Source: Arcobacter sp. FWKO B
GTDB taxonomy: Bacteria; Campylobacterota; Campylobacteria; Campylobacterales; Arcobacteraceae
DNA: 64,000 nucleotides
Reading direction: 5' to 3'
Assembly (NCBI RefSeq): GCF_014844135.1
Contig: NZ_CP041403.1
Location: 434,001 to 498,000 of the forward strand
Part shown: positions 57,879 through 61,927 of the stretch, piece by piece
Layout of the letters: the number at the start of each line of letters is the position of its first letter
Position numbering within the stretch: the first letter of the stretch is position 1
Notes under the pieces: generated by a model
The model's input: only the letters and a program-made list of their open reading frames with translations
Told to the model about the DNA's origin: nothing
The model's database searches: none
Made by a program: the position numbers and the translations under genes

Positions 57879-57913
57879 TAGGTTTTAGGTTGTAGATGGT
57901 AGATGGTAGAATA
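57879..57913. repeat. heptamer tandem array
   Basis: Five 7-bp units (TAGGTTT, TAGGTTG, TAGATGG, TAGATGG, TAGAATA) directly abut a GGAAC unit. Confidence 0.75.
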
Positions 57914-57914
57914 T

Positions 57915-57935
57915 GGAACGCCGAATTTATTCGGT
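57915..57935 (-). repeat. GGAAC hairpin repeat, single second-type unit
   Basis: GGAACGCC followed by stem CCGAAT/ATTCGG equals the inverted second hairpin of full elements. No first hairpin is attached. Confidence 0.8.
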
Positions 57936-57963: not shown

Positions 57964-57991
57964 ATTATTAATTATTAGTTATTAACTATTA
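57964..57991. repeat. heptamer tandem array at mnmA 3' end
   Basis: ATTATTA, ATTATTA, GTTATTA, ACTATTA, overlapping the stop codon of the folK-mnmA ORF. The same three unit sequences recur at 62391, 4.4 kb away. Confidence 0.75.
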
Positions 57992-59626
57992 GTTAAATAC
58001 AATTTCCCCCGACCCCACAACCTTATCCCCAATATAAAACACCCCATACTGCCCAACTGCCACTCCAAAAACTGGCTCTTTTAGGCTAACATATGCTTTA
58101 TCATCTTTTATCTTCACATGACAAGCTACTCCACTACTTCTGTATCTTAGCTTCACTGTCGCATCAAATTCCAATTCATCTACAAACATATTAAGACTAC
58201 TCAAAACTACACGGTTTACTGCTAAATGTTCTTTTGTTCCTACTGTGATAGTATTGTCTTTTGGATTGGTGGATAGTACAAAATGTGGGTCATGAGCCCC
58301 ATGGACACTAAAACCTCTTCTTTTTCCTATGGTGTAGTGCATATATCCTTTATGTTTACCTACTACTTTGCCATCTTTTAGCACATCACCATCTTTGTCC
58401 GTGTCAAAATGTTTACTCAAAATATCAGTATATACTGTAGGTACGAAACATATCTCTTGGGACTCTTTTTTATCAGCTATTGTTTTGAAGCTTGGCATTT
58501 TTGAAGCCATTGAGACAATCTCTTCTTTTTTGTAGCTACTCATCGGAAATATAAGCATAGGAAGTACATCTTTGCTCACTTGAGCTAGAAAATAGCTTTG
58601 GTCTTTTGTAGCATCATCAGCACAATATATAAACTCCCCATCTGTCTTTGCATAGTGTCCAGTAGCAACTTTGTCCATCCCAAGACTCTTTGCAAACTCC
58701 ACCATAGCACCGAATTTAATAAGTCGATTGCACACTACACACGGATTTGGAGTGATACCCTCACGATAGCTTTGGACGAAATAATCATAAACTTTTTCTT
58801 TGAACTTATCTTCAATATCAAGTATGTGGTATTTTATACCTAAGAAATTAGCAACCTTTGCCACCGCTTCAAGGTTTTGCTTATGATAATCTTCACTTAC
58901 GCTATGAAGCTTCATATACACACCCTCTACATCATAGCCCATTTTTTGGAGCATCATAGCACTCATACTAGAATCCACGCCACCGCTAAGACCGACTAAA
59001 ACCTTCAGTTTAGGTGATAATTTTTGGAACCCCAGATTCATCTGGGCTTGTCTTAATTGTCTTAATCGGAACCCAGACTTCAGTCGGGCTTGTCTTTGTT
59101 GGAACCCCAGATTTATCTGGGCTTGTCCTAAAGAAAACCGAATAAATTCGGCGTTCCAAAAACTAAGCGGTATCATCACACTTTCTCTTTTTGTATATTC
59201 AGGATGGGGAAGTGTTAGATTTTTGGATTTTATGGTTTTGTTTTTATATGTGATTATATCTATATCTATAGTTCGTGGAGCGTTTTTAAACTCATTTTTA
59301 CGATGGAACCTTCGCTCTAACCTCTGCGTATATTTCAAAAGTTCAAATGGATTCAAATGTGTATCTATCACCACCACCGCATTATAAAAATCATCTTGAT
59401 CCACATACCCAAAAGGTGGATTTTGAAGTATAGGTGAAGTTGCTATTAGCTTGATTTGAGTATTTTGCTTTAGCATCATATAAAGCATATCAAATCTTTT
59501 TTTGACATTACCCACATTACCACCAATTCCTAGTACGACATATTTTGAAATATCTTTTATATTCCTTTTATTAGGAAAATTATCAGTATAAAAAAGTGTT
59601 AAATCTTTTGTTAGTTGTTTTTTCAT
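57989..59626 (-). CDS. mnmA: FolK-MnmA fusion joined by a repeat-encoded linker
   Basis: One uninterrupted 545-aa frame. Residues ~28-156 are HPPK/FolK of folate synthesis (GIGGNVGNVKKRF, FYNAVV, RTIDIDII, LPHPEYTKR). Residues ~205-545 are MnmA, which thiolates U34 of tRNA: PP-loop GLSGGVDSSMSA, catalytic Cys in NPCVVCNR, KDQSYFLAQ, and SQEICFVP with the second Cys. Residues ~157-200 are wholly encoded by three GGAAC repeat units and read as near-copies of QAQINLGF. Where MnmA normally starts (M-KVLVG) the codon is CTG (L-KVLVG); an ATG in a repeat loop at 59041 could also initiate. Whether one or two proteins are made is unresolved. Confidence 0.88.
   Translation of the reverse strand: MKKQLTKDLTLFYTDNFPNKRNIKDISKYVVLGIGGNVGNVKKRFDMLYMMLKQNTQIKLIATSPILQNPPFGYVDQDDFYNAVVVIDTHLNPFELLKYTQRLERRFHRKNEFKNAPRTIDIDIITYKNKTIKSKNLTLPHPEYTKRESVMIPLSFWNAEFIRFSLGQAQINLGFQQRQARLKSGFRLRQLRQAQMNLGFQKLSPKLKVLVGLSGGVDSSMSAMMLQKMGYDVEGVYMKLHSVSEDYHKQNLEAVAKVANFLGIKYHILDIEDKFKEKVYDYFVQSYREGITPNPCVVCNRLIKFGAMVEFAKSLGMDKVATGHYAKTDGEFIYCADDATKDQSYFLAQVSKDVLPMLIFPMSSYKKEEIVSMASKMPSFKTIADKKESQEICFVPTVYTDILSKHFDTDKDGDVLKDGKVVGKHKGYMHYTIGKRRGFSVHGAHDPHFVLSTNPKDNTITVGTKEHLAVNRVVLSSLNMFVDELEFDATVKLRYRSSGVACHVKIKDDKAYVSLKEPVFGVAVGQYGVFYIGDKVVGSGEIVFN
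59026..59157 (+). repeat. GGAAC hairpin array inside folK-mnmA
   Basis: Two first-type units (59026..59054 stem CCAGAT; 59068..59096 stem GACT with one mismatch) and one full paired element (59101..59157, stems CCAGAT and CCGAAT). Start-to-start distances are 42 and 33 bp and the total is 132 bp, all multiples of three, so the reading frame of the host ORF is kept. Confidence 0.93.
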
Positions 59627-59646: not shown

Positions 59647-60030
59647 TTATTTATTGATACATTTGTCTATATCTTTATCAAAACTATATACTTTAAATCC
59701 TTGAAGCTTTACCTTAGCACATATCAAAGCATCTACAAAATCTATATTTTGATTTTCTAAAATATTCAATGTTTCAAAAAGTATGATTTTATCGTAATTA
59801 ACTACACCATCCAAACTCAAAATAGACTTTAAATCATTTATTACTTCGATTTTAGGTAATTTATAAACTTTAACAAGCACAAAAAAACACTCCATCAAGA
59901 CACTTTCTAAAATCACAACTTCAACTTGTCTATTTTCTATTTTTTGGAAGATAATTTTTGACTTTTCAAATAACTCACTATTATCACCTGTCAAAAACCT
60001 AATAATCACATTTGCATCAACTAATGTCAT
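59647..60030 (-). CDS. vapC: PIN-domain toxin
   Basis: A 127-aa PIN-domain ribonuclease. The acidic residues that bind metal are Asp 5 in LVDANVIIRF, Glu in LMECFFV, Asp in NIDFVDALI and Asp in SFDKDID. Its start overlaps the antitoxin gene by 14 bp, the usual VapBC arrangement. Target RNA unknown. Confidence 0.87.
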   Translation of the reverse strand: MTLVDANVIIRFLTGDNSELFEKSKIIFQKIENRQVEVVILESVLMECFFVLVKVYKLPKIEVINDLKSILSLDGVVNYDKIILFETLNILENQNIDFVDALICAKVKLQGFKVYSFDKDIDKCINK

Positions 60031-60265
60031 ATTTTGCCTTCATTGCCACAATCATCAAATCTTCTTTAGCTTTATCTATATCATCTATTTTGCATACTCT
60101 ATTTTTATACTTACCTGCCAATATATCTATCACAGAACTTTGTTTTACAGGATAAACAACAGCTATCTTTTTATTTTGTCGCTTATCAACTATCTCTATA
60201 ACTTCGCTTATTTTACTCAAAATTGAAGTATTTTTTTGTATCTCACCAATTCCTATAGAAATCAT
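60017..60265 (-). CDS. Antitoxin partner of VapC (Phd/YefM-like)
   Basis: An 82-aa protein whose N-terminal half (ISIGIGEIQKN, EVIEIVDKRQNKKIAVVYP) resembles Phd/YefM antitoxins that bind the operon promoter; the C-terminal half is charged and would wrap the toxin. AAAGG lies before the ATG. It is upstream of and overlaps vapC. Confidence 0.75.
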   Translation of the reverse strand: MISIGIGEIQKNTSILSKISEVIEIVDKRQNKKIAVVYPVKQSSVIDILAGKYKNRVCKIDDIDKAKEDLMIVAMKAKYDIS

Positions 60266-60845: not shown

Positions 60846-61927
60846 ATAAATGCATATTTTCACCAAATTAAGCTGTTAAAACTTTTGCTACTTTAGCATA
60901 AAAAACCTCAGATGGAGTTTTATATCCAAGTGATTTTCTAGGTCTATTATTTAATCTGTTTTGGATTTCTCTAATTTCCTTTCTTTTAACTTTAGTGAAA
61001 TCTGTCTGTTTGGGTAAATATTGTCGTATTAGACCATTTGTATGTTCATTTAATCCTCTCTCCCAAGAGTGATATGGATTTGCAAAGTAAAACTTTGCAT
61101 CTAATGCTTTTGATACATTTTCATGATATGCAAACTCTTTGCCATTATCTGATGTAATGGTATGCGTAAGTTCTCTTATTGGATAAAGCATATCTATTAA
61201 AGCTTGAGATACAATATCTGCTTTTTTAGAATCAACTTTTTTGATTAATGTAAACTTTGATGCTCTATCAACAATAGTAACTAATGCACCAATATGATTT
61301 TTACCTATTACTGTATCTATCTCAAAGTCACCAACTCTTTTTTTATGTTCAACAATTTTTGGTCTTTGTTCAATAGATACTCTGTTTTTAATAACTCCTC
61401 TAGAGTTATATTCATTTCCTCTTTTATGATACTTTTTATTTTTATGTCTAAGTTTTAGATATAGTTTCCCATCATGATATTTGTTCTTGTAAATATACTG
61501 ATAAATAGTTTCATGGGATACCCAAGGCAGTTTCTTCAATCTCATAACTCCAGATATTTGTTCAGGAGACCAATCCTCTTTAAGCTTATCTTTGATGTAG
61601 TTCATAACTTTTCTAGTAAGCTTTAAATGTTTGGTTTTATATTTGTGTCTATAAAAACTCAACTGTTCTGCAACTTCAGGTTTGTAGTCGCCTTCAGAAC
61701 TATTTCTTTTTAGTTCTCTGCTAATTGTAGATTGTGAAGTACCTAAACAATCAGCAATTTCTTTTTGAGTATATCCAACCTTAATATAAGCATATATCTG
61801 GTATCTTTCTTTTAGGGTTAACTGTGTGAATTTCTTCATAAATATTTTCCTATTTTGTGGTGAAAAAGGATAACAAAATATTTGTTAACCCTCCTATAAC
61901 CTTCACTTTAAGAAAATATGCATTTAT
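60846..61927 (-). mobile_element. IS30-family insertion sequence
   Basis: A 1082-bp unit bounded by perfect 16-bp inverted repeats: ATAAATGCATATTTTC at 60846..60861 and its complement at 61912..61927. It contains one intact transposase gene. Flanks on the minus strand read ATC and CTC, a possible 3-bp target duplication with one change. Confidence 0.88.
60868..61839 (-). CDS. IS30 family transposase
   Basis: A 323-aa DDE transposase. The N-terminal helix-turn-helix shows YTQKEIADCLGTSQSTISRE. The catalytic residues are Asp in FEIDTVIGK, Asp in TSDNGKEFA and Glu in RGLNEHTNGLIRQ, followed by LNNRPRKSLGYKTP, all typical of IS30. The frame is complete, so the element may be active. Confidence 0.95.
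   Translation of the reverse strand: MKKFTQLTLKERYQIYAYIKVGYTQKEIADCLGTSQSTISRELKRNSSEGDYKPEVAEQLSFYRHKYKTKHLKLTRKVMNYIKDKLKEDWSPEQISGVMRLKKLPWVSHETIYQYIYKNKYHDGKLYLKLRHKNKKYHKRGNEYNSRGVIKNRVSIEQRPKIVEHKKRVGDFEIDTVIGKNHIGALVTIVDRASKFTLIKKVDSKKADIVSQALIDMLYPIRELTHTITSDNGKEFAYHENVSKALDAKFYFANPYHSWERGLNEHTNGLIRQYLPKQTDFTKVKRKEIREIQNRLNNRPRKSLGYKTPSEVFYAKVAKVLTA

What the first reader, a model, noticed from the sequence alone, without database searches (positions are those of the whole stretch)
57989..59626. Repeat array acts as an in-frame linker fusing FolK to MnmA
Three GGAAC hairpin units (132 bp, 44 codons) lie between the FolK and MnmA parts of a single ORF. All spacings (42, 33, 57 bp units) are multiples of three, no stop arises in this frame, and the units translate to repeated peptides such as QAQINLGF and QAQMNLGF. 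The repeat replaces the FolK end, and the usual MnmA start Met is now a CTG codon. The sequence therefore suggests that insertion of non-coding hairpin DNA created a bifunctional folate/tRNA-modification protein, or that an ATG inside a repeat hairpin (59039-59041) became the mnmA start.
Basis: partly seen in the sequence, partly recalled or inferred. Interest (0 to 1): 0.85.

Follow-up and report, generated by a model that had tools for sequence, protein, structure and literature searches.

The report
Mobile hairpin repeats in fusion-protein linker
Two ordinary bacterial enzymes, one for folate and one for tRNA modification, are made as one fused protein in this Arcobacter-like genus, and small mobile hairpin repeats later landed in frame in the flexible linker between them without having caused the fusion.

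Summary
One 545-aa ORF (57989-59626, minus strand) holds a complete FolK (HPPK) and a complete MnmA, joined by a 52-aa linker. Most of that linker (132 bp, 44 codons) is GGAAC-hairpin repeat. There are four hairpins, not three: two tandem direct units plus one head-to-head pair (59101-59157).

The repeat is a dispersed REP/REPIN family, with about 102 units catalogued genome-wide. Its densest cluster surrounds the genome's only detected Y1 (IS200-like) transposase gene, a RAYT-type gene.

The claim that the repeat created the fusion is not supported. All three other genomes of the genus carry the same in-frame fusion with different linkers (27, 28 and 18 aa), and the most divergent has no repeat. 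None of 397 other Campylobacterota genomes scanned gave a fused ORF. The most likely order: folK and mnmA fused in the genus ancestor, a REP unit then entered the linker of one sub-lineage, and this genome expanded it. Two relatives also carry heptamer tandem repeats there. Every linker is open and in frame, and both domains are under purifying selection, so the linker is almost certainly translated.

In-frame intragenic REPs and rickettsial RPEs are already published. I found no report of a FolK-MnmA fusion.

The parts
57989..59626 (-). FolK-MnmA fusion ORF, 545 aa (stop codon at 57989-57991)
   Evidence: same fusion in G001-G003
59162..59626 (-). FolK (HPPK) part, residues 1-155, with the PRTIDID motif; the only HPPK match in the genome
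59006..59161 (-). linker, residues 156-207 (52 aa); low-confidence region in the AlphaFold model
57992..59005 (-). MnmA part, residues 208-545, with SGGVDS, NPCVVC and QEICF motifs retained
59026..59067 (+). REP unit 1 (GGAAC hairpin with CTTGTCTTAA tail), 42 bp
59068..59100 (+). REP unit 2 (degenerate GGAAC hairpin), 33 bp; aligns with the single REP unit of G001/G002
59101..59157 (.). complete REPIN: direct GGAAC hairpin 59101-59121 and inverted hairpin 59138-59157, 57 bp
57915..57934 (+). REP unit in the intergenic region just beyond the mnmA stop codon

Best explanation
An ancestral folK-mnmA gene pair became a single FolK-MnmA gene in the ancestor of this Arcobacteraceae genus, by loss of the folK stop and the mnmA start. 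The resulting flexible, dispensable linker was then colonised by non-autonomous repeats. In the lineage leading to this genome these are REP/REPIN elements, presumably mobilised by the genome's RAYT transposase. Only insertions that keep the frame and carry no stop survive, because MnmA can now be translated only as part of the fusion. The linker is therefore a tolerated, hypervariable spacer rather than a functional module. Shown: the fusion ORF in four genomes, REP identity, the RAYT gene inside the REP cluster, frame conservation, purifying selection on both domains. Inferred: RAYT-driven mobility, translation of the full-length protein, activity of both domains, order of events.
For: Same in-frame fusion in all four genus members, with linkers of 52, 27, 28 and 18 aa; G003's has no repeat. 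No fused ORF among the other named loci whose MnmA start motif was readable; in 397 Campylobacterota genomes the only other match across both parts was two ORFs separated by stops. folK directly abuts or overlaps mnmA in several family members. Linkers contain no ATG except in G000; G003 has no ATG/GTG/TTG at all. Under composition shuffles all four linkers are open with joint probability about 7e-4, or 2.5e-5 including frame, ignoring relatedness. dN/dS 0.04-0.06 (FolK) and 0.07-0.11 (MnmA) among G000-G002. Only one HPPK per genome. About 102 REP units, 28 head-to-head pairs. RAYT gene at G000:C1:1660636-1661169 inside the densest REP cluster, best NCBIfam hit REP_Tyr_transpos. A second clean in-frame REPIN insertion lies in heptosyltransferase II and is absent from G001-G003 and G016. 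Linker pLDDT is below 50 while most MnmA blocks are above 85.
Against: No protein-level data. The G003 MAG has one in-frame TAA inside its MnmA part: pseudogene, MAG error or real mutation. G000 and G001 carry a second stand-alone MnmA, so the fused MnmA may be partly redundant there. Internal initiation at GTG/ATG codons at the end of FolK cannot be excluded from sequence. The RAYT scores 79.2 bits, just under the NCBIfam cut-off of 80. Mobilisation by RAYT is by association only.
Confidence: 0.85

Rival explanations
1. The REP insertion itself created the fusion by bridging folK and mnmA in frame.
For: Most of the G000 linker is REP sequence, and G001 and G002 also carry one REP unit in the linker.
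Against: G003, the most divergent genus member, has the same fusion with a repeat-free 18-aa linker, and its genome holds no real REP match. The only rescue is loss of the REP in G003, which is less parsimonious.
Confidence: 0.07
2. Two proteins are made: FolK ends in the linker region or by processing, and MnmA starts internally, at ATG 59039-59041 in the REP hairpin or at GTG/ATG codons at the end of FolK.
For: An in-frame ATG exists in G000 at 59041, and GTG/ATG codons occur in the conserved SVMIPLS segment. G003 retains an AAGGAG motif just before the MnmA domain that may be a relic ribosome-binding site.
Against: There is no stop between the parts in any of the four genomes. The ATG in the linker is not conserved and has no Shine-Dalgarno-like motif at usable distance; it lies in a strongly hairpin-forming repeat (z = -4.1).
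Confidence: 0.1
3. The REP-encoded linker is functional: the hairpins or the RQAQxNLGF peptides regulate expression or couple the two activities.
For: The RNA of the linker folds more strongly than shuffled sequence, and one REP unit is kept in three genomes.
Against: Strong folding is a property of REP palindromes everywhere. Peptide sequence and linker length are not conserved (18-52 aa), and G001 and G002 carry unrelated heptamer-encoded peptides.
Confidence: 0.06

Closest known systems
Intragenic REPs (GTAG/CGTC-tagged REPs within ORFs; Di Nocera et al. 2013, PMC3733652)
   Same: Short palindromic repeats and their dimers or clusters inserted in frame inside genes for conserved enzymes, encoding 20-82 aa; most family members intergenic.
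   Different: This family carries a GGAAC tag instead of GTAG or CGTC, and here the insert lies in the linker of a gene fusion rather than inside one protein.
REPIN/RAYT systems (Bertels and Rainey 2011, PMC3116915)
   Same: Head-to-head REP doublets, predominantly extragenic, with an IS200-like RAYT gene in the same genome surrounded by them.
   Different: Different tag and phylum (Campylobacterota); mobility not shown; RAYT only just below the curated NCBIfam cut-off.
Rickettsia palindromic elements, RPE (Ogata et al. 2000, reviewed in PMC2229807)
   Same: Palindromic elements inserted in frame in protein-coding genes, with the protein still made and active in the tested case.
   Different: RPEs are 105-146 bp and of other sequence; no associated RAYT was mentioned in the passages read; here only two coding insertions were found.
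Bifunctional folate-enzyme fusions such as HPPK-DHPS (own knowledge, not tested)
   Same: HPPK joined to another enzyme in one chain.
   Different: The partner here is a tRNA 2-thiouridylase with no known pathway link; probably a consequence of gene neighbourhood.

Membership tests
REP / REPIN | Short palindromic hairpin with a conserved terminal tag, many copies, mostly extragenic | tested here: met
   About 102 units with the GGAAC tag; only two loci inside convincing ORFs
REP / REPIN | Inverted doublets (REPINs) over-represented | tested here: inconclusive
   28 head-to-head pairs (56 of 102 units), mostly 56-61 bp, which is frequent, but no formal null model was run
REP / REPIN | Cognate RAYT gene flanked by the repeats | tested here: met
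   Single Y1_Tnp gene with REPs on both sides in the densest cluster; NCBIfam REP_Tyr_transpos is the best hit at 79.2 against cut-off 80
REP / REPIN | Mobilised by the RAYT | not testable with these tools
   Copy number follows RAYT presence: G000 52 exact matches, G001 6, G002 2, G003 no real one; no close RAYT in G001-G003; association only
GTAG/CGTC REP superfamilies | GTAG or CGTC end tag | tested here: not met
   The tag is GGAAC/GTTCC in the units catalogued
HPPK (FolK) | Pfam PF01288 / NCBIfam TIGR01498 above cut-off | tested here: met
   99.3 and 124 bits, both above curated cut-offs
MnmA | NCBIfam NF001138 above cut-off, PP-loop and catalytic cysteine motifs | tested here: met
   367 bits against cut-off 284; SGGVDS, NPCVVC, QEICF present
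Rickettsia palindromic elements | RPE length of 105-146 bp | tested here: not met
   REP units and REPINs here are 33-70 bp with the GGAAC tag
Rickettsia palindromic elements | RPE sequence | not tested
   No comparison with RPE sequences was run

The most novel reading that the evidence does not exclude
A newly fused gene's linker acts as a preferred landing site in which unrelated repeat types (REPs, heptamer tandem repeats) repeatedly expand in steps of whole codons and tune the spacing between two enzymes, so that mobile repeats supply adaptive linkers for young gene fusions.
Probability: 0.08. Interest if true: 0.65.

Novelty: new member of a known kind. Interest (0 to 1): 0.35.

Why it matters
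It is a clear case of mobile non-coding hairpin DNA being read as an interdomain linker, with a relative that shows the state without the repeat. It also documents a FolK-MnmA fusion confined to one genus and a GGAAC-tagged REP/RAYT family in Campylobacterota; neither turned up in the literature searched here. It warns against reading such a repeat as the cause of a fusion without checking relatives.

Tried and rejected
Rfam search of the window: no match. Reading the CTG as a lost Met start: rejected, since relatives have Pro or Lys there. Fusions suggested by open_frame_aa in G020, G022 and G025, and by G151: direct translation shows separate ORFs; G033 carries the same flag but its folK end was not read directly. 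L085 (Sulfurovum MAG 135), which matched along its whole length, is two ORFs with stops between. The Y1 transposase of G001 (L160) has no GGAAC REPs nearby and is a different gene. Paper searches for a FolK-MnmA/TrmU fusion and for REPs in Arcobacter returned nothing.

Full report
What was checked. The ORF at 57989-59626 (minus strand) is continuous and encodes 545 aa. HPPK (FolK) matches residues 31-155, and the MnmA domains match residues 208-542, all above curated cut-offs. Between them lie 52 residues, 44 of which correspond to a 132-bp block at 59026-59157. The block has GGAAC starts at 59026, 59068 and 59101 and an inverted GGAAC ending at 59157, so it contains four hairpins. The last two form one 57-bp head-to-head pair.

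What the repeat is. The same hairpin is dispersed over the chromosome: 52 exact pattern matches against none for the reversed control, and about 102 units in a looser catalogue made from fetched stretches. Of these units, 56 form 28 head-to-head pairs, mostly 56-61 bp. This is the anatomy of REPs and REPINs. The genome has one detected Y1 (IS200-like) transposase, at G000:C1:1660636-1661169, in the densest cluster of these repeats with units on both sides. Its best NCBIfam hit is the REP-associated tyrosine transposase at 79.2 bits, just below the cut-off of 80; it passes Pfam Y1_Tnp. I infer that it is the cognate RAYT; mobility itself is not shown.

What the relatives show. The three other genomes of the genus (G001 = UBA6211 MAG, L082; G002 = a MAG labelled Arcobacter nitrofigilis, L083; G003 = a MAG labelled Aliarcobacter butzleri, L084) all have FolK and MnmA in one frame with no stop between. 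Linkers are 52, 27, 28 and 18 aa. G003's linker has no REP. G001 and G002 each have one REP unit at the same place, followed by heptamer tandem repeats, CTACCAC (4.4 copies) and CACTCAG (3.6 copies) respectively. In several other members of the family the two genes abut or overlap as separate ORFs. In a scan of 397 Campylobacterota genomes only G151 matched across both parts, and it has stops between them. So the fusion appears genus-specific and older than the repeat in it. The most parsimonious order is fusion, then one REP unit in the G000/G001/G002 line, then expansion to four hairpins in G000.

Is it translated as a fusion? All four linkers are in frame and open. Shuffling each linker's bases gives a joint probability of about 7e-4 for being open, and 2.5e-5 with frame included, a rough figure that ignores relatedness. 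G003 has no ATG, GTG or TTG in its linker, and G001 and G002 have only a GTG next to the FolK end. The ATG in the G000 repeat is not conserved, has no usable Shine-Dalgarno-like motif upstream, and lies in a strongly folding hairpin region. dN/dS among G000-G002 is 0.04-0.06 for FolK and 0.07-0.11 for MnmA, so both parts are constrained. The FolK part is the only HPPK in each genome. A stand-alone second MnmA exists in G000 and G001, is fragmented in G002 and was not found in G003. The G003 MAG also has one TAA inside its MnmA part, which I cannot resolve from the assembly.

An independent parallel. A second in-frame REPIN lies in this genome's heptosyltransferase II (306957-307004; L058:999-2015). 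The alignment shows a clean insertion of about 17 residues that is absent in G001, G002, G003 and G016. Two coding insertions among about 102 units fit the view that REPs are tolerated in ORFs only where an extra loop or linker does no harm. Three of six frames of the FolK-MnmA block happen to be open, and 13 of 28 REPINs have a length divisible by three, so no special targeting is needed.

Structure. AlphaFold2 on a 21-sequence alignment gives confident MnmA domains, a moderate FolK core and very low confidence over residues 131-203. This fits a flexible linker but is not proof, given the shallow alignment.

Relation to known work. In-frame REPs inside genes, including dimers and clusters encoding up to 82 aa, were described by Di Nocera et al. 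2013 (PMC3733652), and in-frame RPEs in Rickettsia are reviewed in PMC2229807. REPIN/RAYT systems are described in PMC3116915. This family differs in its GGAAC tag. No paper in the searched library mentions folK with mnmA or trmU and fusion; that library misses most subscription journals.

Verdict. The causal story is not. The finding is a well-documented example of a known phenomenon, tolerated in-frame REP insertion, set in a gene fusion that seems undescribed.

Noticed in passing
L058:999-2015 (-), REPs at 1503-1550 (G000:C1:306957-307004): In-frame REPIN insertion of about 17 aa in heptosyltransferase II, absent in sister genomes.
   Followed up: yes
L159:3013-11462 (G000:C1:1659012-1667461): Dense cluster of about 29 GGAAC REPs around a single RAYT-type gene.
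   Followed up: partly
L084:272-1831 (G003): One in-frame TAA inside the MnmA part of the fused gene in this MAG, and no second MnmA found there: pseudogene or assembly error.
   Followed up: partly
G000:C1:726888-727895: Second, stand-alone MnmA (49% identical) in this genome; its counterpart in G002 is broken into pieces.
   Followed up: partly
L082:3511-3541, L083:3512-3536, window 57892-57910: Heptamer tandem repeats of different sequence recur in and near these genes and next to REPs; those in the two linkers keep the frame.
   Followed up: partly
window 59647-60265 (-): Small two-gene pair directly upstream of folK-mnmA; the 127-aa product looks like a PIN-domain toxin (by eye, not tested).
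   Followed up: no
window 60868-61839 (-): 323-aa ORF that looks like an IS30-type transposase (by eye, not tested).
   Followed up: no
window 28458 and 28949: Two REPs 491 bp apart with identical immediate flanks, suggesting a local duplication.
   Followed up: no
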